Of a stretch of 64,000 bases of DNA, positions 19,448 to 63,865 are shown piece after piece. The position numbers were made by a program, and so were the translations under genes. Position 1 is the stretch's first letter, and every line of letters starts with the position of its first letter. The DNA is from Armatimonadetes bacterium 55-13. Lineage in GTDB: Bacteria; Armatimonadota; Fimbriimonadia; Fimbriimonadales; Fimbriimonadaceae. Under the pieces are notes generated by a model. The model ran no database searches, was not told the origin of the DNA, and worked only from the letters and a program-made list of their open reading frames with translations. Where the stretch lies: the NCBI GenBank assembly GCA_001898035.1, contig MKRX01000002.1, positions 175,901 to 239,900 on the forward strand, in the 5' to 3' direction.

Positions 19448-19457
19448 CCTCCCACCC

Positions 19458-19490
19458 TAACACCTAACACCTAATACCTAATACCTACCC
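19458..19490. repeat. Heptanucleotide tandem repeat (TAAYACC)n
   Basis: Four contiguous 7-mers, TAACACC twice then TAATACC twice, followed by a partial TACCCC. The array overlaps the stop codon of gltB (19485-19487). Related arrays are at 54528-54555 and, broken up, at 46072-46107 and 46303-46331. Confidence 0.75.
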
Positions 19491-46040: not shown

Positions 46041-46197
46041 CCCACCCAACGCCCTCGTCGCGAAGCGCCCCTAACACCTAGCGCGAAGCGCCCTAATACC
46101 TAACACCTGCGGCATAGCCGCCCCCAGCCACCGGCAGGTGTAGCCGCGGGAGGGGTCCCGCGCTGAGCGCGAAGAATCAAAGAGCGCAACCGCCCCA
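46041..46197. repeat. Imperfect direct repeat, copy A
   Basis: This sequence shares with 46272-46412 a series of blocks in the same order: CCCACCCAACGCCCTCGTCG, a TAACACC heptamer, AAGCGCCCTAA, AGCCGCCCCC, GCCACCGGCAGGTGTAG and GAGCGCGAA. Differences are scattered substitutions and short indels. It lies in a 509-base gap without genes. Confidence 0.7.
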
Positions 46198-46223
46198 AGA
46201 AGAACCGAAGAGGAATATAACGT

Positions 46224-46271
46224 GACATGACCGTCTCGGTCATGGTTTCCACAGACGTCCCGCCCGTGACG
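46224..46271. repeat. REP-like palindrome pair, degenerate copy
   Basis: ATGACCG-TCT-CGGTCAT (46227-46243) followed, after GGTTTC, by a weaker second stem ending in CGCCCGTG (46261-46268). It matches the element at 54321 almost base for base in the first palindrome and the spacer. It sits between direct-repeat copies A and B. Confidence 0.6.
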
Positions 46272-46412
46272 CCCACCCAACGCCCTCGTCGTGAAGCGAC
46301 CCTAACACCTTGCGCCAAGCGCCCTAACACCAGTGGCAAAGCCGCCCCCGGCCACCGGCAGGTGTAGGCGCCGGTCCCCCGGCGTGAGCGCGAACAATTA
46401 CAAGGCGCTAAC
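46272..46412. repeat. Imperfect direct repeat, copy B
   Basis: Second copy of the unit described at 46041, offset by 231 bases in the same orientation. It includes GCCACCGGCAGGTGTAGGCG and GTGAGCGCGAA and two TAACACC heptamers at 46303 and 46325. Confidence 0.7.
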
Positions 46413-46471
46413 CACAAAAAAAGACCAACAAAAAAGCACCCAGCACAACGTACTGAGCGCTCGAAAATTCC

Positions 46472-46546
46472 TGGAGCCGATGACGGGACTCGAACCTGCG
46501 ACCTGCTGTTTACGAAACAGCTGCTCTACCACTGAGCTACATCGGC
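46472..46546 (-). tRNA. tRNA-Thr (CGT)
   Basis: A complete 75-nt cloverleaf on the minus strand: acceptor GCCGATG/CATCGGC, D arm with AGCTCAGTGGTAGAGC, anticodon loop TTCGTAA (anticodon CGT, reading ACG), T arm GCAGG-TTCGAGT-CCCGT-like and an encoded CCA preceded by T. It stands alone between the repeat region and the restriction-modification operon. Confidence 0.95.
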
Positions 46547-46619: not shown

Positions 46620-48104
46620 CTACTTCTCGCCCAAATCCCCTGCAATCAAGGCAAATTGCTCCAAGGCGGCTTGCAGGTCTTCCATGATCTCCGCCGCGAT
46701 CACGTCTGGCTCCGGCAGGTTGGCCCCATCCTCCAAACTCTCGTCGCGCAGCCACATCAGGTCTAAATTCGCCTTGTCTCGTGAGACGATCTCCTCATAG
46801 GAATAGGCCCGCCATCGTCCCTGCGGATTTTCCTCTGACCAAGTCGCTCTCCGTTCGTGCCGTTTCCCGGGCTTGAACGCCTCCACAAACTCATCCAGAT
46901 CCTCTCGTTTGAGCGTTCGAGTCTTGAGGGTGAAGTCCTTGTTGGTGCGGAAATCGTAATACCAAACCTCTCGGGTCCACGGTGTTTCGCTGGCCGGCTT
47001 TCGGTCAAAGAAGATCACATTCGCCTTGACCCCCTGCGCGTAAAAGATCCCGGTCGGGAGCCGCAAGACCGTGTGTAGATCTGCTTGAGCCATCAATCGA
47101 CGGCGAACCGTCTCTCCCGCCCCGCCTTCAAACAGGACATTGTCCGGGACCACGACTGCCGCCCGTCCGTGCTGCTCGAGGATCGTAAACACATGCTGGA
47201 CGAAATTAAGTTGTTTGTTACTCGTCGTCGCCCAAAAATCGCTTCGTTCTAGGGTCAAACTTTCTTTCTGAGTATCGCCATCCGCCCCCACGATCGTGAC
47301 GCTGCTCTTGCGGCCAAACGGAGGATTGGTGAGCACCATGGAGTACTCCCCGTGCTTGTCCATCAAGGCGTCTCGGCTCGTAAGCGGCAGGTTTCCATCC
47401 GCGTCTCCCCCCACGCCATGAAGCATCAGGTTCATCGCGCACAGACGGCTCACGCCGTCTACCAACTCCACGCCATAAACCGTCTTCGTTTTAAGTTGCC
47501 GCAGTTGGTCCAGGTCTAATCCCTTGTCTTCGGCAATGTGGTCGTGCGCGGCTAACAGGAATCCGCCCGTACCGCAAGCCGGATCACAAATCGTGTCCCC
47601 AATCTTCGGGTCCATGCATTCCACAATCGCCTGAATCAAGGGGCGAGGCGTAAAGTATTGACCGGCGCCCCCCTTCACGTCCGCCGCGTTCTTTTCCAAG
47701 AGCCCTTCGTAGGCGTCTCCTTTGACGTCGGAGGCCATCGCCGTCCAATTCTCTTTGTCGATCAGGTCAACGATTAGTCGTTGAAGTTTCGCCGGGTCCT
47801 GAATCTTGTTTTGGGCCTTCCGGAAAATCAAACCCAAAAGCCCGCCCTGCTTGGCCAATGCCTCCAGGGTGTGCCGGTACTGATTCTCTAAATCGTCTCC
47901 GGCTAGTTTGACCAGGGCGGGCCAAGAGTATTCGGCGGGAATGGCGCTGGGCACGTTATAGGGAGCCAAAGACTTCTCGTGCGCCATTTTCAGAAACAGC
48001 AGGTAGGTTAGCTGTTCAACATAGTCGCCGTAAGAAAGACCATCGTCCCGCAGAACGTTGCAGTAGTTCCACAGCTTTTGAACCAAAACTTGAGGTGAAC
48101 TCAT
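46620..48104 (-). CDS. hsdM: Type I restriction-modification DNA methyltransferase subunit
   Basis: A 494-residue HsdM, an adenine N6-methyltransferase working with HsdS. ATG 48104 overlaps the stop of the upstream DUF262 gene by 4 bases; an open frame reaches 48179 but its residues are out of family. The helical N-terminal HsdM_N domain (VLVQKLWNYCNVLRDDGLSYGDYVEQLTYLLFLKM) is followed by the SAM site DPACGTGGFLL at 174-184 and the catalytic NPPF at 260-263. It is the last of four overlapping minus-strand genes. Confidence 0.95.
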   Translation of the reverse strand: MSSPQVLVQKLWNYCNVLRDDGLSYGDYVEQLTYLLFLKMAHEKSLAPYNVPSAIPAEYSWPALVKLAGDDLENQYRHTLEALAKQGGLLGLIFRKAQNKIQDPAKLQRLIVDLIDKENWTAMASDVKGDAYEGLLEKNAADVKGGAGQYFTPRPLIQAIVECMDPKIGDTICDPACGTGGFLLAAHDHIAEDKGLDLDQLRQLKTKTVYGVELVDGVSRLCAMNLMLHGVGGDADGNLPLTSRDALMDKHGEYSMVLTNPPFGRKSSVTIVGADGDTQKESLTLERSDFWATTSNKQLNFVQHVFTILEQHGRAAVVVPDNVLFEGGAGETVRRRLMAQADLHTVLRLPTGIFYAQGVKANVIFFDRKPASETPWTREVWYYDFRTNKDFTLKTRTLKREDLDEFVEAFKPGKRHERRATWSEENPQGRWRAYSYEEIVSRDKANLDLMWLRDESLEDGANLPEPDVIAAEIMEDLQAALEQFALIAGDLGEK

Positions 48105-49876
48105 ATCGTCCACGACCAAGTGATCAGCGCCGTCGCTGCCAATCGGCGAGAGCGTTCTCGAACCGCTTCGAGATTCCAAGTGGAGTCGTGAGCCTTCAAC
48201 TCTCTCACGAGGGCTGTAACGTCCGAGTAGCTTTCAATTTTTGACACAAAAGGATTCTGTCCCGCATGGCTATTCGCCGGGGCGCTTAAAAGGCAGAGAT
48301 TTCCGATGCTGTTCACGTAAGTATCCAGGCGCTGGTCGTTAACGTCGTCTCCTAAATAGGCTTGCCAGTGATCGTCTAGGGACTGAGGAATAATGTGCTC
48401 AATGGTGTTGGTTGTCGAATAGTCCGGGAACTGTCCATGAGTTTGCAGTTTCCGGTCAATCTCCGCCAGCACCATCCGGGTAAAGGCCAGGTCGCGGCTT
48501 CGGTAGAGCGTTCGGTGGACTAGCGCCTCCTCAAATTCCTGGTCAGACACCCACACCCCATTGCGTCGGAACTGTTCCTGCAAGGCCTTCACCGGGTCCG
48601 GCTCGTTGGCAACCAAGCCAAACAGCCGGGGGAACATCGTATCGTACATCGTCGTCGGTTGCTCGGTCATCTTGCGCCGAACCAGCAAGGTCAACAACTC
48701 GTTGAGCAAAGCAAGCGCCTGCGCGGTTTGCAGGCTCCCTTGCGCGTGGGTTCGGAGCAAACCCAAAACGAACGGGGTGCAACTGTCCATTCGCGTGTGG
48801 GAGATCGCTCCCAACACCTTGCGAATCGCCGGGTCGGGGTGCATCTTTTCTTCCGGATTCACCACGTACCCATACAGCTTCGCGCACTCATGAATCTCGC
48901 TCAGCCGGTGCCGTGCGGAAGTCGCGTTCAGGTGCCGGTACTTGTTCTTGAAGTAAACATAGATCTTTCGGTGCTTGCCCACCATCTTTTTCTCGCCAAT
49001 CGAGAAGAGGTTGCGCAGATATTCCTCAAACTGCTCTCGCTTGGGAAAGAGCCTTATCGCCTGTAACCAGTGCATGTTGTGTAGCTGCTCAAAGTCGCTG
49101 ACTCCCTGTAAGGGGCGGAAAAGGTGGCTACAGATAAGCTCACTGGCCGAGAGCGGCATCCCTTTATCGTTCAAACTCTCGAAAATCGCCTGGGGGTCGT
49201 CCTTCCGGTCATCTAGGGGAATCCAGACAACCTTCAAGCTTTTCAGGAGCACGGTCGCCAGTTGCCAAAGCGAAGGGACGTCGTTGAACTGGTGTTTGAA
49301 CTTCCTTTCGACGTACGTCGTGAATTCATCCACCTGGTTGTGGCCCGGTCGATAGATCTGAACGTCCGTCAGATAGTGCGGAGAAACCGGGTTATGTTCT
49401 GAACCAAAGACCGCCCGATACGTCGGGAGCCGGTCGCCCTTGGTGGAGAGAAGTTTCAGGCGTTGGTAGTCGTCGTCGGAGGTCTGCGTGTTGGTCAGGA
49501 GCGTTCTCAATTGCAACGCGAACCCCAGCGCATCTCCCGCTTTATGTTGCAGACGTTCTAACCGCTGCATGATATGAGCCAACAGCAGGTAGACGGTGGT
49601 GATGCGTTGCTGCCCGTCGATGACCACAAAGTGCCGCCCTTCTCCCTCGGAGAATGCCTTTTCGAGCACCACGATCGGCCCAAAGAAGTGCTCCGCCTCC
49701 TCAACTGAAGAACCATCGTTTAGGTCGGGCAGGATTTCCTCGGAAATGTCCTCGAAGAGTTGGTCCCACTGCTTCTTCTCCCAGGCATAGCCGCGCTGAA
49801 AGAACGGAATTTCGTAGCGGACATCGCCCTCGAAGATCTCTTGAAAGGTGCGATTGCGTACGTTGTCTTGGGGCAT
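48101..49876 (-). CDS. GmrSD-type DUF262-DUF1524 nuclease inside RM operon
   Basis: A 591-residue protein with the two-part layout of GmrSD-type modification-dependent (type IV) enzymes. DUF262 at the N-terminus carries IPFFQRGYAW (23-32) and the NTPase/ParB-like VVIDGQQRITT (DGQQR 87-91). The DUF1524 HNH nuclease near the C-terminus has NTIEHIIPQS (EHIIPQS 493-499). Its ATG directly abuts the hsdS stop (TAGATG) and its stop overlaps hsdM, so it is expressed as part of the type I operon. It could cut glucosylated or hydroxymethylated phage DNA that HsdR cannot. Confidence 0.88.
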   Translation of the reverse strand: MPQDNVRNRTFQEIFEGDVRYEIPFFQRGYAWEKKQWDQLFEDISEEILPDLNDGSSVEEAEHFFGPIVVLEKAFSEGEGRHFVVIDGQQRITTVYLLLAHIMQRLERLQHKAGDALGFALQLRTLLTNTQTSDDDYQRLKLLSTKGDRLPTYRAVFGSEHNPVSPHYLTDVQIYRPGHNQVDEFTTYVERKFKHQFNDVPSLWQLATVLLKSLKVVWIPLDDRKDDPQAIFESLNDKGMPLSASELICSHLFRPLQGVSDFEQLHNMHWLQAIRLFPKREQFEEYLRNLFSIGEKKMVGKHRKIYVYFKNKYRHLNATSARHRLSEIHECAKLYGYVVNPEEKMHPDPAIRKVLGAISHTRMDSCTPFVLGLLRTHAQGSLQTAQALALLNELLTLLVRRKMTEQPTTMYDTMFPRLFGLVANEPDPVKALQEQFRRNGVWVSDQEFEEALVHRTLYRSRDLAFTRMVLAEIDRKLQTHGQFPDYSTTNTIEHIIPQSLDDHWQAYLGDDVNDQRLDTYVNSIGNLCLLSAPANSHAGQNPFVSKIESYSDVTALVRELKAHDSTWNLEAVRERSRRLAATALITWSWTI

Positions 49877-51373
49877 CTAGCTGGCGCCTCCAAAGGCTTT
49901 TTGGAGGATGGCTTGGCGAAGATGATTTGCTCGCGTGAGGTTTGTTGCGATTAGCGATTCCATTTGCTTTACAAGAGACATTCTGCGCTCTAATTCTGTA
50001 ACGATTCGACACTGTTCTTTAAGTGGCGGAAGCGGAACCACAATACTTGTTAACTGCGGTTGGGCTATTTTATAGATTCCCGCTGTTGTCTTTACACGGT
50101 CTTCAATTTGCCTTCGGATAAATTTAGAGGGCCAAATTGTGGCAATCCAATTACTTACACTTAGGTCGCTAGAAAAACGCAGGCGAATCATGGTGTCCGG
50201 ATAAATTGTGGGTTCCAATGGTGCCTGTGCCGTGGTACCACGCCCTACAAGGTGTAAACTGCCATTCCCGCGCGATACAAAGAAGTCACCTTCCTTAATC
50301 CAAACGTCTTTTGGTAGACCTGAATCAAATGAGAGATATCGAACGTCGGAATAATCAAAACCATTTTCCAAGAATGCACTTAGACGAAGTGCCCTTATGC
50401 CAGGAGGATAGTCTTTCCCTTTTTGCGAAATCCCGTTGCACGGTGGAGCAGTGATAACCTGGGCAATTGAAACACAAGCCCAGCCCGTGGGTAAGTCAAC
50501 ACCAGCGAAGGCAGGTGTTACTGGCTCGAAATATTTACCCCTGCCCGCCCAAGCCTTTCGCCGCTCTTCTAAAATACGCTGAAGCAGTTGCTCCCCGGTC
50601 TCAAAGGAATCCATCGGGAGTGAGGGTTGAGGGCCTGAACCGCCCGCATCTTCGGAGCGGCTGTTTTGTAAACAGCGGGTCGCCAATTCATACTCCGTAG
50701 GCACCAACCGCCCCTCACAAGCCGCCTTGAGCACCGAAGCCCGGTAACGCTTAAGATTAGCCTGGGCTCGCTTGAGTGCGGAAACAGCAATATCTAGACG
50801 AGATATCTGGGCATCCAAAAACGAAACGATTTCGTCCTGAGTTTCAACATCTGGAATGCAAACACAGAATGCTTTTGCTTCTGGGAAATAAATAGTGGTG
50901 TGAGCTACACCCTCGGAGATACTATGCAAAAATCTCTTTTCGGATTGGAATATACATTGCAGAAATCTCGGGCGAAGAAGCGGTGAGCAGATCCAGTTCA
51001 CAAATCCTTGGCTGGTAGCCATCTCGCTGCCTAATATAACGGCATATCCGATGGAACCTGTCCTACTTAAACAGACAGTCCAGGGGGGAAGGACAACTGC
51101 TGCGGAATTTGAAATCCCTAGAGGGTTTGTAGTTTCGCTGGTTTCGTAAATTACCCGTCCATCATGGGCACGGGCATCAGATACATTCATCCATGGAATG
51201 TCGCCGCCCCAATATTCTGGATGTCTTCTGCTAGGCGTATGTCCTGACATCATTGTGGCGACGCTGTTGAGAAAAACCCAGCGCCATCCTACTGGTGCCG
51301 TCTTGGAAGGTATTCCAACCGAAAGAGCACCATTTCCCGGTCTAATATCGGTGGTTGCTGCTCTACCGCTCAC
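49877..51373 (-). CDS. hsdS: Type I restriction-modification specificity subunit
   Basis: A 498-residue HsdS with two target-recognition domains, each followed by a conserved helix. TRD1 begins WVFLNSVATMMSGHTPSRRH and ends with FLDAQISRLDIAVSALKRAQANLKRYRASVL. TRD2 begins LPTGWACVSIAQVITAPP and ends with ELERRMSLVKQMESLIATNLTRANHLRQAIL. It sets the split target sequence. It overlaps hsdR by 4 bases. The TRD-coding parts (about 50000-50450 and 50830-51200) look more AT-rich than the neighbours, which is usual for horizontally exchanged TRDs. Confidence 0.95.
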   Translation of the reverse strand: MSGRAATTDIRPGNGALSVGIPSKTAPVGWRWVFLNSVATMMSGHTPSRRHPEYWGGDIPWMNVSDARAHDGRVIYETSETTNPLGISNSAAVVLPPWTVCLSRTGSIGYAVILGSEMATSQGFVNWICSPLLRPRFLQCIFQSEKRFLHSISEGVAHTTIYFPEAKAFCVCIPDVETQDEIVSFLDAQISRLDIAVSALKRAQANLKRYRASVLKAACEGRLVPTEYELATRCLQNSRSEDAGGSGPQPSLPMDSFETGEQLLQRILEERRKAWAGRGKYFEPVTPAFAGVDLPTGWACVSIAQVITAPPCNGISQKGKDYPPGIRALRLSAFLENGFDYSDVRYLSFDSGLPKDVWIKEGDFFVSRGNGSLHLVGRGTTAQAPLEPTIYPDTMIRLRFSSDLSVSNWIATIWPSKFIRRQIEDRVKTTAGIYKIAQPQLTSIVVPLPPLKEQCRIVTELERRMSLVKQMESLIATNLTRANHLRQAILQKAFGGAS

Positions 51374-54189
51374 GCAGCCAAAACCTCATTCAATTCCTTC
51401 AACAAGCCTGAAAACTCCTCACCAAACACTAAAAACGCCTTCCCCAATCCGCCTTTTTGCTGAAACGGCTTATAGTCAAACGCCTCCGCGTCGATCGATA
51501 AACTCGCCGCGATGTGATCCTTGATCATCGTTAGCCATTCCACCTGCTCGGTAGAGAACCGAGCGCTCCCCTGTTCGCTCAACCACCGCTGGAACCGGTC
51601 GTCTACCGTCTCTGCAAACGGCGCCAAAACCGTTTCATGCTCCAGCGCGAACCGAATGAGTGAAACCAGGTCGGTAACCATACCTCGCGTATGTCCCTTC
51701 ACCCGCGATGCCTCCAAGATTTCATAGGCTTGCCAAAGCCGTTCCGGCGTCCAACTTCGGGGCGGCGTCTCGATCGCGGTGGCCAGTTCCTTGAGTTGCC
51801 GAAACGTCGGCGCTAGTCCCTTGCGTCGGCTATACAGAAGTTGAATCGCCGAAATCTCGTCTTTGTTCTCGTCCAAATACTGCCGGAAACTCTGAATCGT
51901 CGTTCGCGCCTTCTCGGTCGCTTCGGCGCTCACCCCTGCGTACAGAACTTCGTCTTTGCTCGTGGTGTCGATGGTCTGTTCCGCATCCTGCTGAGCGAGC
52001 AGAATCACGTTTCGGAGTTCTGGGTTCAGGAAGGGTTCCAGAGCCGCTTCGCGTCGTTCCAACCCCACCGTCTCCACATCCCGGTGGGTTGCTGCCGCCT
52101 CCAATTCCACTTGATCTGGATCTAAACTGGCCACCAACTGGTGAATCAGGGTGTGCAGCGGCGCCCCGCCAAGCTGTTCGATCTGCTTAAGTTGTCCGTC
52201 GCCAATGATATTGCTAAGCCGAGAGAGCCGACTCGCCAGTGTGCTCACCACTTCCGGCTCTGTGCTTCCCGCCCCCACTGCTTGCAGAACCACCTTGAGC
52301 GGAACGCTCGGCTGGCGTTCGAGCGGAGGTGAGTCGGACTTGATATGCTCCGTAACCCCTACCGCGTCCACAATCACGTAACGTGTTTTGTTCTTGGCAT
52401 CGGGGGTCACGTTGCGAAAATCGGTGGGAGAAATCGTCCGGCAACCGCGCCCCTTCATCTGCTCGAAGTAGTTGCTGCTCTTGACATCCCGCATGAAGAA
52501 CACCACCTCCAACGGCTTGATGTCGGTGCCCGTCGCAATCATATCCACCGTCACCGCGATGCGAGGCATTGGCGAGTTCTGGAAAGAGGACAGCAGGTTC
52601 TCCGCCTTGATGTTCGTATTCTTGTAAGTTACTTCTTGAGTCTCGGGGTCCACAATCCGGGCCGTCGAGCTTCGGTAGGTGATCTTCTCGCAGAACTCAT
52701 TCCCCTTCCCAAAGACCTCGCGCACAATACGAACGATATCCTCCGCGTGACTGTCGTCTTTCGCAAAGATCAAGGTCTTGGGAACCCACGTGCGCTCTGG
52801 AAAGACCTCAGGCAGAAACTTCTCTTTGAACGTCTTGATCACCGTTCGAATCTGATCAACCGCCACCACCGCGCGATCGAGTTCATTCGGCGCGTACTCC
52901 AAATCCTCGTCAAGCTCCTCCCATCGGAGCTTTCGCGTCCGCCGATCGCGCTTGTCGACGATGGTCCCTGCCTCCGCCAGCCCCCCTTCGGAGCTGATCT
53001 TGGTCTGAATTCGGTAAACGTCAAAGTCTACGTTCACCTGGTCCGCCACCGCCTGCGCGTGTCCGTACTCCATCACCAGGTTCTGTTCAAAAAATCCCAA
53101 AGTCTGCTTGCTGGGGGTCGCCGTAAGTCCAACCAGATGAGCGTCGAAATATTCCAGAACCTGTCGCCAAAGGTTGTAGATGCTCCGGTGGCATTCGTCG
53201 GTAAATACGAAGTCAAATGTCTCGATAGGAATCTGAGGGTTGTAAACCACCGGCAACGGTTCTTTTCGAAACCGCGCAAAGGCGCTCGCTGCCGACTCTT
53301 CTTCGTCGTATGAACTCTCGGCTTCGCCTTTGAGAATGCTGTAGAGCCTCTGGATCGTGGTAATGACCACCTTGCAGACCGGATCGATCTTGTTGTGCTG
53401 CAGGTACTGCACGTTGTAGAGGTCGGTGAAATTCCGGTTTCCATCCGGGGTCTTGTACTTCTGAAACTCCGCCAGCGTCTGACGTCCCAGGTTGCCCCGG
53501 TCCACCAAGAACAGAATCCGCCTCGCCCCGCCATACTTAATCAGCCGGTACGCTTGGGCGACTGCCGTATACGTCTTCCCACTCCCCGTCTGCATCTGGA
53601 TCAGCGCCCGCCGTCGGTCTTCCCCTAAGGATTGCTCCAGATTCTGAATCGCCTGAACCTGGCACTCCCGCATACCCTTGGCATCCAGCCGGGGCATGTT
53701 CTTTAGCCTGTGGAGAGTATTGCTGGCGTCGTACGCGCTGACCCGCTCTCGCACCACCCCCGGAACCAATTCAAACGGCTCGCCCAGTGTCTTGGGCTGG
53801 TGAAAGGTAAACAGATCTCGACTCTTGGGATCGGGATCGGTCGTGTTCGTAAACTTCGTCTCAATTCCCGTCGAAAGATAGATGTAGGGAAGGGGCTTTC
53901 GATGAAAGGGCAGGTTGTCCGGCAGGCCACGGCTATACCGTTCGGCCTGAACCTCCACCCCGGTCAAGGGCTCTCCCTCCTTCTTCGCCTCGATGACGCC
54001 CACCGCGCGTTTGTTCACATAAAGCAGGTAATCAACCTTGCCGTGTCCGCGCTTCAGAGGAAACTCGCGTACCGCGATCCCCGGCCCCGCCGCAAGATTA
54101 AGCTTATCGTGGTCCTGCACCACCCACCCCGCAAGCTCAAGCATCGCATCGATCCTCTCCCTCGCTCTATCTTCCGGACCCACTGGCAC
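51370..54189 (-). CDS. hsdR: Type I restriction endonuclease, ATP-dependent translocase subunit
   Basis: A 939-residue HsdR. The N-terminal PD-(D/E)xK nuclease shows GKVDYLLYV (D53) and GVIEAKKEG (E67-A-K69). Superfamily 2 helicase motifs follow: GSGKT at 202-206, DECH at 331-334, TATPS and later ATGTDI. It lacks the very long C-terminus of EcoKI-type HsdR and resembles the shorter EcoEI/HsdR_N group. The start GTG 54189 has a TATAAT box only 9-14 bases upstream, so the transcript may be leaderless; a good ribosome site (GGAGGG) lies before an ATG at 54196 that is one base out of frame. Confidence 0.93.
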   Translation of the reverse strand: MPVGPEDRARERIDAMLELAGWVVQDHDKLNLAAGPGIAVREFPLKRGHGKVDYLLYVNKRAVGVIEAKKEGEPLTGVEVQAERYSRGLPDNLPFHRKPLPYIYLSTGIETKFTNTTDPDPKSRDLFTFHQPKTLGEPFELVPGVVRERVSAYDASNTLHRLKNMPRLDAKGMRECQVQAIQNLEQSLGEDRRRALIQMQTGSGKTYTAVAQAYRLIKYGGARRILFLVDRGNLGRQTLAEFQKYKTPDGNRNFTDLYNVQYLQHNKIDPVCKVVITTIQRLYSILKGEAESSYDEEESAASAFARFRKEPLPVVYNPQIPIETFDFVFTDECHRSIYNLWRQVLEYFDAHLVGLTATPSKQTLGFFEQNLVMEYGHAQAVADQVNVDFDVYRIQTKISSEGGLAEAGTIVDKRDRRTRKLRWEELDEDLEYAPNELDRAVVAVDQIRTVIKTFKEKFLPEVFPERTWVPKTLIFAKDDSHAEDIVRIVREVFGKGNEFCEKITYRSSTARIVDPETQEVTYKNTNIKAENLLSSFQNSPMPRIAVTVDMIATGTDIKPLEVVFFMRDVKSSNYFEQMKGRGCRTISPTDFRNVTPDAKNKTRYVIVDAVGVTEHIKSDSPPLERQPSVPLKVVLQAVGAGSTEPEVVSTLASRLSRLSNIIGDGQLKQIEQLGGAPLHTLIHQLVASLDPDQVELEAAATHRDVETVGLERREAALEPFLNPELRNVILLAQQDAEQTIDTTSKDEVLYAGVSAEATEKARTTIQSFRQYLDENKDEISAIQLLYSRRKGLAPTFRQLKELATAIETPPRSWTPERLWQAYEILEASRVKGHTRGMVTDLVSLIRFALEHETVLAPFAETVDDRFQRWLSEQGSARFSTEQVEWLTMIKDHIAASLSIDAEAFDYKPFQQKGGLGKAFLVFGEEFSGLLKELNEVLAA

Positions 54190-54203: not shown

Positions 54204-54320
54204 GTCCCTCCAACCTCCGACGGGAAGCCCCAAAGCTGGCAATCCAAGTTGACTTGCCTACTTGAAAAAGCGCCTCGATACTGCCTGCCTCATCCATGAG
54301 GCTGATCAAGGGCCAAACGT

Positions 54321-54368
54321 GGCATGACCGTCCCGGTCATGGTTTCCACGGGCGTCTCGCCCGTGGCG
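54321..54368. repeat. REP-like palindrome pair
   Basis: Two adjacent palindromes: ATGACCG-TCC-CGGTCAT (54324-54340) and CACGGGCG-TCT-CGCCCGTG (54347-54365), joined by GGTTTC. A degenerate copy lies at 46224. The arrangement resembles REP/BIME elements. Confidence 0.7.
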
Positions 54369-54414
54369 CGTCTCGGAACTCAAAAAGCGCCCCCGTACCC
54401 GGCAATGCGGAGAC

Positions 54415-54516: not shown

Positions 54517-54527
54517 CCCGTTCCCCC

Positions 54528-54555
54528 TAACACCTAATACCTATCACCTAACACC
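54528..54555. repeat. Heptanucleotide tandem repeat (TAAYACC)n
   Basis: Four contiguous units: TAACACC, TAATACC, TATCACC, TAACACC. It begins 12 bases after the prepilin stub and has the same unit as the array at 19458. Confidence 0.75.
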
Positions 54556-54561
54556 TTTGGA

Positions 54562-54585
54562 GGGGCGTTTTACGCCCCGTAAAAC
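54562..54585. terminator. Hairpin at the end of the transporter/DUF1501 block
   Basis: GGGGCG-TTTTA-CGCCCC (54562-54578) and the alternative GTTTTAC-GCCCC-GTAAAAC (54567-54585) are mutually exclusive stems just after the DUF1501 gene. No T-run follows on the minus strand. A terminator or processing site is likely. Confidence 0.4.
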
Positions 54586-54588
54586 CCC

Positions 54589-54632
54589 CCTCCATAGGTA
54601 TCCCTTCGATCATAGGGTATCCAATCGATCAA
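54589..54632 (-). repeat. Inverted copy of a 42-44 bp repeated sequence (left end)
   Basis: Read on the minus strand this begins TTGATCGATTGGATACCCTA and ends AAGGGATACCTATGGAGG. It differs from 63824-63865 by one three-base shift and about three substitutions, in opposite orientation. It includes the stop codon of the DUF1501 gene. Confidence 0.75.
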
Positions 54633-56140
54633 GCCAAAAGGTCTTTCACCACGAACCCATGAACGTCCGTCAACCGGAAGTCCCGACCCGCATACCGATA
54701 GGTCAGTTTCGTATGGTCCACCCCAAGCTGATGCAGGATCGTCGCGTTCAAATCATGAACATGCACCGCCCCCGGAGTAAATGAGTCCGGAGTCGGATTC
54801 AAAACCTGCCCATCCTTGTCCACGATGTTGTAGCTAAAGTCGTCCGTGTTGCCATAAACAATCCCCGGCTTCACGCCACCCCCCGCCATCCACATAGTGA
54901 AGCACCGAGGATGGTGGTCCCGACCATAGTTCTCCTTGGTCAACGGCCCCTGACAATAAACCGTCCGCCCAAACTCACCCCCCCAAACAATCAAGGTGTC
55001 ATCCAGCATCCCCCGCCGCTTCAAGTCCATCACCAAGGCCGCACAAGCCTGGTCGATGTCCTTACACTGCAACGGCAAATCTCCCCCCAAGTTGCCATGC
55101 TGATCCCAACCCCGGTGGAAGATCTGAATAAACCGAACCCCCCGCTCCGCCATCCGCCGAGCCAACAAACAGTTCGCCGAAAACGTCCCCGGCTTCCGAG
55201 CCTCCTCTCCATAAAGCTCAAACGTCTCGTCCGACTCCTTAGAAAGGTCCATCAAGTCCGGCACACTCGTCTGCAACCGGTAAGCCATCTCATACTGCGA
55301 GATCCGCGCCGCAATCTCAGGATCGCCAAAGTGGTTCAGCTGCATATTGTTCAGCTTCGCCAAACTGTCCAGCATCCGCCGCCGAGACATCGCGTCCACC
55401 CCATCCGGATTGTCCAGATAAAGCACCGGATCCCCCTTACTCCGCAGCGCCACCCCCTGATGCTCGCCCGGCAAGAACCCCGCCCCCCAAAGTCGAGTAA
55501 ACACCGCCTGAGCATCCGCCTTAGAACTCCATGAGGAGTGAAGCACGATGTAAGTCGGCAGATCCTGGTTCATGGTGCCCAGCCCATAACTGACCCAAGC
55601 CCCAATACTCGGCCGCCCCGGCAACTGGCTCCCCGTCTGAATAAACGTCACCGCCGGATCATGGTTAATCGCCTCCGTATACATCGACTTGATGACACAA
55701 AGATCTTTCACCACCTTGGAAGTGTAGGGAAGCAGTTCACTCACCCAAACCCCATCCTCGTTGTTGTCGTACTTGTCGAACTTGTACTTAGAAGGCGCCA
55801 CCGGGAACCGAGCCTGGCCACTTGTCATCGTGGTGATTCTTTGTCCCATCCGAATGTCGTTCGGCAGATCCTGATCAAAGTGGTCTGGCAACTTGGCCTT
55901 GTAGTCCCACATATCGATCTGACTCGGCCCCCCGTTCATCGTCAGATAGATCACCCGCTTGGCCTTGGGCGCAAAATTCGGCATCCCCGGCAATCCGCCG
56001 TGAGCGTTCGGCTGCTGAGGAGAAGCCAGCGCCTCAACATTCAAAATGCTTGCCAAAGCCGCCGTACCCACCCCAAGCGCCGCCTTTCCAAAAAGCTGTC
56101 GCCGAGTGTAAAGAAGTTCGTGTTCGCGTCGAGGATCCAT
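54629..56140 (-). CDS. DUF1501 family exported protein
   Basis: A 503-residue protein with a twin-arginine-like leader ([21 protein letters not shown]). The DUF1501 fold is related to sulfatases and alkaline phosphatases: [97 protein letters not shown]. Always found with DUF1549/DUF1553 proteins in Planctomycetes, as here with the gene 5 bases upstream. Role unknown; possibly sugar-sulfate or polymer processing. Confidence 0.93.
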
Positions 56141-63823: not shown

Positions 63824-63865
63824 TTGATCGATTGGATACCTATGAAGAAGGGATACCCATAGAGG
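63824..63865 (+). repeat. 42-bp sequence repeated in inverted orientation (right end)
   Basis: This starts TTGATCGATTGGATACCTAT and ends AAGGGATACCCATAGAGG, with an internal direct repeat GGATACC at 63834 and 63851. Its inverted partner lies at 54589-54632, after the last gene of the same operon. It sits about 55 bases upstream of the ATPase gene and 93 bases upstream of the ribulokinase-like start, so an operator role is also possible. Confidence 0.75.

What the first reader, a model, noticed from the sequence alone, without database searches (positions are those of the whole stretch)
46620..54189. GmrSD-type DUF262/DUF1524 nuclease embedded in a type I restriction-modification operon
The four genes hsdR, hsdS, DUF262-DUF1524, hsdM overlap or abut (ATGA or TAGATG junctions) in one minus-strand operon. 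The inserted gene has the DGQQR and EHIIPQS motifs of modification-dependent GmrSD enzymes. Known for the family: GmrSD cuts glucosylated-hydroxymethylated phage DNA. Inference: one transcript encodes defence against both unmodified and modified phage DNA, or the DUF262 protein has become a fifth subunit or effector of the type I complex. The gene order R-S-x-M is also unusual.
Basis: partly seen in the sequence, partly recalled or inferred. Interest (0 to 1): 0.65.

Follow-up and report, generated by a model that had tools for sequence, protein, structure and literature searches.

The report
Type IV nuclease in type-I cargo slot
A gene for an enzyme predicted to cut chemically modified phage DNA sits inside a type I restriction-modification operon; this pairing is already known, and the gene occupies a slot between hsdS and hsdM that in related operons from other bacteria holds one of many other defence or toxin genes.

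Summary
In detail: one minus-strand operon, hsdR-hsdS-GmrSD-hsdM, with overlapping or abutting genes and every catalytic motif of a fused DUF262-DUF1524 (GmrSD) protein. The novelty is mostly gone. GmrSD genes inside type I loci were noted in Campylobacter (RloF), in a 2015 survey, and shown to work in Vibrio cholerae (TgvAB, active without HsdR restriction). The exact order R-S-GmrSD-M also exists in an annotated Gemmobacter plasmid. R-S-x-M is the normal order of this hsdM lineage: of 36 complete relatives sampled, 33 carry extra DNA (300 bp or more) between hsdS and hsdM, against 8 between hsdR and hsdS. That slot holds at least 15 unrelated families (PIN, TIR, SIR2-like, Fic/RhuM, HEPN, Schlafen AlbA_2, OLD-type AAA, RES, reverse transcriptase, GIY-YIG, GmrSD). 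Operons with 86-96% identical HsdM carry different cargo, and DNA homology resumes within a few bases of the hsdM start. The closest GmrSD relatives (57-60%) stand alone in other phyla. Best reading: GmrSD is a self-contained, exchangeable cargo gene, probably an independent nuclease against modified phage DNA co-expressed with the type I system, not a new subunit. Functional coupling to the type I complex was not tested.

The parts
51370..54189 (-). hsdR, type I restriction/translocase subunit (939 aa, EcoEI_R_C type)
   Evidence: Pfam HSDR_N, ResIII, EcoEI_R_C
49877..51373 (-). hsdS, specificity subunit (498 aa, two target-recognition halves)
   Evidence: Pfam Methylase_S; PADLOC Specificity_I over both halves
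48101..49876 (-). fused GmrSD protein (DUF262-DUF1524, 591 aa): cargo gene in the S-M slot
   Evidence: GmrSD_N 2e-33, GmrSD_C 3e-23; PADLOC Orf5/HEC-06; motifs invariant
46620..48104 (-). hsdM, N6-adenine methyltransferase subunit (494 aa)
   Evidence: HsdM_N, N6_Mtase; the only PF02384 gene found in the genome
46472..46546 (-). tRNA-Thr (CGT) directly downstream of hsdM, followed by a terminator-like hairpin 46462-46434
   Evidence: ARAGORN; pattern scan
46219..46272 (-). downstream copy of a 54-bp dispersed repeat with two short palindromes
   Evidence: 89% identical to the copy at 54316-54369; 5 copies in the genome at up to 3 mismatches
54316..54369 (-). upstream copy of the same 54-bp repeat, same orientation

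Best explanation
This is a complete type I restriction-modification operon of a widespread lineage whose normal gene order is hsdR-hsdS-[cargo]-hsdM. The slot between hsdS and hsdM is a hotspot where whole defence or toxin genes are swapped; here the cargo is a single-chain GmrSD enzyme. The likely mode of work: one transcript yields (i) R2M2S, which methylates adenines in its own motif and cuts DNA lacking that mark, and (ii) an independent GmrSD protein whose DUF262 domain senses a DNA modification and hydrolyses nucleotide, licensing the DUF1524 His-Me (HNH) domain to cut phage DNA whose hypermodified bases escape the type I enzyme. Shown here: anatomy, motifs, slot, cargo turnover, stand-alone relatives. 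Inferred from homology (Eco94GmrSD, BrxU, TgvAB): substrate and independence of action.
For: Operon and domains. Catalytic motifs invariant. R-S-x-M in relatives: 33 of 36 have at least 300 bp in the S-M slot versus 8 of 36 between R and S. Cargo families by Pfam. Sister operons with 86-96% identical HsdM hold different or no cargo, with DNA homology resuming within a few bases of the hsdM start. L027 versus L048: the same ImmA-PIN(DUF4411)-hsdM stretch is contiguous in one and split by a 1845-bp GmrSD insert in the other. Gemmobacter plasmid NZ_CP028920 has R-S-DUF262-M with a GmrSD only 21% identical. GmrSD changes state three times on the HsdM tree, once per occurrence. Close relatives L025/L026 stand alone among metabolic genes; L025's genome gave no N6_Mtase hit. 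Published: TgvAB inside a type I operon protects against Tevenvirinae with HsdR restriction knocked out (PMC11411939); type I genes are the most frequent defence neighbours of GmrSD (PMC4619093).
Against: No substrate, activity or expression data exist for this protein. In V. cholerae the full five-gene cluster protected 10-100 times better than tgvAB alone, so some help from the operon context is possible. Near-universal occupation of the slot and frequent overlap with hsdM (19 of 35 within 15 bp) could mean functional coupling rather than mere co-expression. The structure prediction was too poor to use.
Confidence: 0.77

Rival explanations
1. Guard model: like PrrC with EcoprrI, the cargo protein is kept silent by the type I complex and is released when a phage inhibitor disables that complex. 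This would explain why the slot so often holds toxin-like effectors (TIR, PIN, HEPN, Fic, RES).
For: Slot cargo is rich in abortive-type effector families and often tightly coupled to hsdM. PrrC is a precedent (PMC12707154).
Against: For this GmrSD, 57-60% identical relatives live without a neighbouring type I system, one in a genome with no N6_Mtase found (an assembly of unknown completeness). No anticodon-nuclease domain. TgvAB works without HsdR restriction.
Confidence: 0.1
2. The DUF262-DUF1524 protein is an added subunit or effector of the type I complex, using HsdS for targeting.
For: Position next to hsdM and overlapping reading frames.
Against: Unrelated proteins fill the same slot in sister operons with 86-96% identical HsdM. 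The gene exists alone in other phyla. The slot GmrSDs of the window and of the Gemmobacter plasmid are only 21% identical.
Confidence: 0.05
3. Chance passenger: the gene landed in the operon, is neutral and has no shared role; the position means nothing.
For: Rapid turnover of cargo.
Against: 33 of 36 operons have cargo in this one slot, versus 8 of 36 at the R-S junction, and the cargo that could be named is mostly of defence or toxin families. Frames and motifs are intact.
Confidence: 0.08

Closest known systems
[quoted passage not shown]
   Same: GmrSD-family genes inside a type I hsd operon; DUF262 and DUF1524 motifs; proposed layered defence against unmodified and modified DNA
   Different: TgvAB needs two proteins (TgvA with DUF262 only, TgvB with both) and its placing is likened in the paper to RloF between hsdR and hsdS; here a single fused protein lies between hsdS and hsdM and there is no second PF03235 gene in the genome
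RloF and the rlo/mlo genes of Campylobacter jejuni hsd loci (Miller 2005, as cited in PMC4619093 and PMC5183652)
   Same: RloF is a DUF262 protein in a type I locus; mlo genes are extra ORFs between hsdS and hsdM, the same slot
   Different: RloF lies between hsdR and hsdS; described within one species
BrxU and Eco94GmrSD single-chain GmrSD enzymes
   Same: Fused DUF262-DUF1524, same catalytic motifs
   Different: BrxU belongs to a BREX island and Eco94GmrSD lies in the E. coli immigration control region; substrate of the present protein unknown
DarTG2 inside a type I operon of enteropathogenic E. coli (PMC12255303)
   Same: A defence module embedded in an hsd operon; the authors propose the site is a recombination hotspot
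   Different: Different cargo, between hsdS and hsdR, with an RptR repressor upstream
PrrC in EcoprrI
   Same: Effector gene embedded in a type I operon
   Different: Anticodon nuclease activated when the type I enzyme is inhibited; no such domain here

Membership tests
GmrSD family (type IV, DUF262-DUF1524) | DUF262 and DUF1524 domains, fused or paired | tested here: met
   GmrSD_N 2e-33 and GmrSD_C 3e-23, both above curated cut-offs
GmrSD family (type IV, DUF262-DUF1524) | QR, DGQQR and FxxxN motifs of DUF262 | tested here: met
   Q27-R28, D87-G-Q-Q-R91, F232-E-S-L-N236, invariant in 17 sequences
GmrSD family (type IV, DUF262-DUF1524) | His-Me/HNH motif EHxxP with downstream Asn | tested here: met
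   E493-H494..P497, N526, N535 invariant
GmrSD family (type IV, DUF262-DUF1524) | Predicted fold matching BrxU/SspE | tested here: inconclusive
   AlphaFold model pLDDT 42.6, not usable; sequence hits to solved DUF262 proteins including SspE, mainly over the N-terminal domain
GmrSD family (type IV, DUF262-DUF1524) | NTP-stimulated cleavage of modified DNA only | not testable with these tools
   needs purified protein
Type I restriction-modification | hsdR, hsdS and hsdM encoded together with intact domains | tested here: met
Type I restriction-modification | Active methylation and restriction | not testable with these tools
   needs methylome or transformation assays
TgvAB | Separate DUF262-only partner (TgvA) | tested here: not met
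   only one PF03235 match in the genome
TgvAB | Position inside a type I operon between hsdR and hsdS | tested here: not met
   inside a type I operon, but between hsdS and hsdM
SspE (phosphorothioate-sensing) | Accompanying phosphorothioation genes | tested here: inconclusive
   no DndC (TIGR03183) match in the genome; SspBCD models not searched separately
PrrC-type guard | Anticodon nuclease domain | tested here: not met
   only GmrSD domains found

The most novel reading that the evidence does not exclude
The hsdS-hsdM gap of this type I lineage is a cross-phylum cargo bay whose contents, GmrSD and many toxin-like effectors alike, are functionally tied to the methyltransferase complex, for example silenced by intact M2S and unleashed when phages inhibit restriction. 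The type I system would then act as a general sensor with interchangeable effectors.
Probability: 0.12. Interest if true: 0.8.

Novelty: new member of a known kind. Interest (0 to 1): 0.42.

Why it matters
The locus itself adds a single-chain, S-M-positioned example to a known pairing. The wider result is more useful: in this hsdM lineage the S-M junction predicts where to look for defence genes, since 33 of 36 sampled operons carry cargo there and several slot proteins have no Pfam match. That makes 'guilt by embedding' directly testable, and asks whether type I complexes guard such cargo as EcoprrI guards PrrC.

Tried and rejected
The viral-contig scan with the GmrSD protein found no relative. 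Synteny for an empty site: DUF1003 neighbours in the same genus and family keep none of the window's other neighbours within the stretches read, so an insertion at tRNA-Thr was neither shown nor excluded. The flanking 54-bp direct repeats as element ends: rejected as proof, because the copies differ at 11% of positions and three further copies lie elsewhere. Promoter scan found no more sites than shuffles. Functional partnership with phosphorothioation: no DndC in the genome. Claim that the gene order is unusual: rejected. Literature on an S-M cargo slot beyond C. jejuni mlo genes: not found in the held library, which lacks most subscription papers.

Full report
Observation. The window holds hsdR (54189-51370), hsdS (51373-49877), a 591-aa DUF262-DUF1524 gene (49876-48101) and hsdM (48104-46620) on the minus strand, each with the expected Pfam domains. 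Junctions are GTGA, TAGATG and ATGA, so the genes are almost certainly co-transcribed and translationally coupled (inference). The genome has one PF03235 gene and one N6_Mtase gene, both here. All motifs that define GmrSD enzymes are present and invariant in a 17-sequence alignment.

Prior art. Machnicka et al. 2015 (PMC4619093) report type I genes as the most frequent defence neighbours of GmrSD and recall RloF of C. jejuni, between hsdR and hsdS. The 2024 V. cholerae paper (PMC11411939) shows experimentally that a two-protein GmrSD system inside a type I operon protects against Tevenvirinae and still does so when HsdR is inactivated. PMC5183652 states that C. jejuni hsd loci also carry mlo genes between hsdS and hsdM. 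PMC12255303 describes DarTG2 between hsdS and hsdR and proposes a recombination hotspot. So embedding as such, and GmrSD embedding in particular, is known.

Relatives of the GmrSD gene. The closest copies are 60% (L025, Solirubrobacterales) and 57% (L026, a deltaproteobacterial MAG) identical and stand alone among genes for an aldo/keto reductase, an HI0933-like flavoprotein, an acyltransferase and an iron permease-like protein. L025's genome gave no N6_Mtase match and L026's only one weak match elsewhere; these are assemblies of unknown completeness. A 55% copy in the window's own family (L027) lies directly before an hsdM 72% identical to the window's. In the GmrSD tree these four form one clade (100/100), with the order inside it unresolved, while the slot GmrSD of the Gemmobacter plasmid falls elsewhere.

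Relatives of the hsdM gene. I sampled hsdM genes by similarity to the window's HsdM, not by slot content, from 291 genomes of the phylum, 398 and 395 genomes of two further phyla and from plasmids. In 36 loci both hsdR and hsdS were found upstream of hsdM, in that order. The S-M gap is at least 300 bp in 33 of 36 and the R-S gap in 8 of 36 (some of those eight may reflect imprecise hsdS ends). Pfam names for slot genes include PIN and DUF4411, AAA_21, DUF4357/GIY-YIG, GmrSD, HIRAN, RES, Mrr_cat, DUF4917, DUF3800, AlbA_2, HEPN, TIR_2, Fic, RhuM, AAA_14/DUF4143, RVT_1, SIR2 with HerA, PHP-SMC and HEPN with nucleotidyltransferase; several slot proteins match nothing.

Turnover. On the HsdM tree neighbours carry different cargo: L125 (a small first ORF, HEPN, nucleotidyltransferase) and L126 (none) have 95.7% identical HsdM; L119 and L122 are 96.4% identical, both with AAA genes but with no detectable DNA homology inside the slot; L058 (GmrSD) and L104 (DUF4917) are 85.7% identical; L113, L117 and L118 hold Fic, a reverse transcriptase and RhuM-Fic. 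In these pairs blastn homology stops in hsdS and resumes within a few bases of the hsdM start. The clearest case is L027 against L048: 68-72% identical DNA runs from the PIN gene straight into hsdM in L048, while L027 has 1845 extra bases, the GmrSD gene, exactly at that joint. GmrSD occurs three times on the tree and needs three changes.

Interpretation. The window's GmrSD is therefore best seen as a whole-gene cargo in a recurrent slot, able to live without the type I system, and most likely an independent modification-dependent nuclease. Being on the same transcript gives joint expression and joint transfer; that benefit is inferred. I cannot exclude functional coupling: cargo overlaps or closely abuts hsdM in 19 of 35 loci, and in V. 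cholerae the whole cluster protected better than tgvAB alone, which its authors attribute to expression balance.

Limits. The slot survey rests on my own ORF calls for unannotated genomes and covers 36 complete loci from three phyla plus plasmids. Cargo names are family matches, not tested functions. The structure model failed. The literature library lacks most subscription papers, including Miller 2005, which I know here only through later papers.

Noticed in passing
window 46219-46272 and 54316-54369: A 54-bp repeat with two short palindromes lies in the same orientation on both sides of the operon plus tRNA-Thr (89% identical); five copies in the genome at up to 3 mismatches. Possibly a REP-like element.
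   Followed up: partly
window 46041-46191 and 46272-46413: A roughly 150-bp direct pair (79% identical) rich in GGTGTTAGG and GGCGCTTCGCG-like words downstream of the tRNA; short related words also occur around 54525-54633, 19455-19487 and 63824-63865.
   Followed up: no
window 46472-46546: tRNA-Thr (CGT) follows hsdM directly and is followed by a strong terminator-like hairpin; the operon may have inserted beside it, but no empty site was found.
   Followed up: partly
L027:68-1757 and L048 (reverse strand, upstream of hsdM): A conserved pair, XRE/ImmA-type protein plus DUF4411 PIN protein, sits in the slot before hsdM in two genera of the family (51% and 68% identical), a toxin-antitoxin-like module.
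   Followed up: partly
L048:9537-10841; L062:10139-11008; L119:13500-14309; L051:9585-10568: Slot proteins with no Pfam match, several paired with OLD-type AAA or PIN genes: candidate unknown defence components.
   Followed up: no
L117:3949-6036: A 695-aa reverse transcriptase (RVT_1) lies between hsdS and hsdM, a possible defence-associated RT in the slot.
   Followed up: no
L132: One relative has hsdR directly before hsdM with no hsdS between, so the order is not universal.
   Followed up: no
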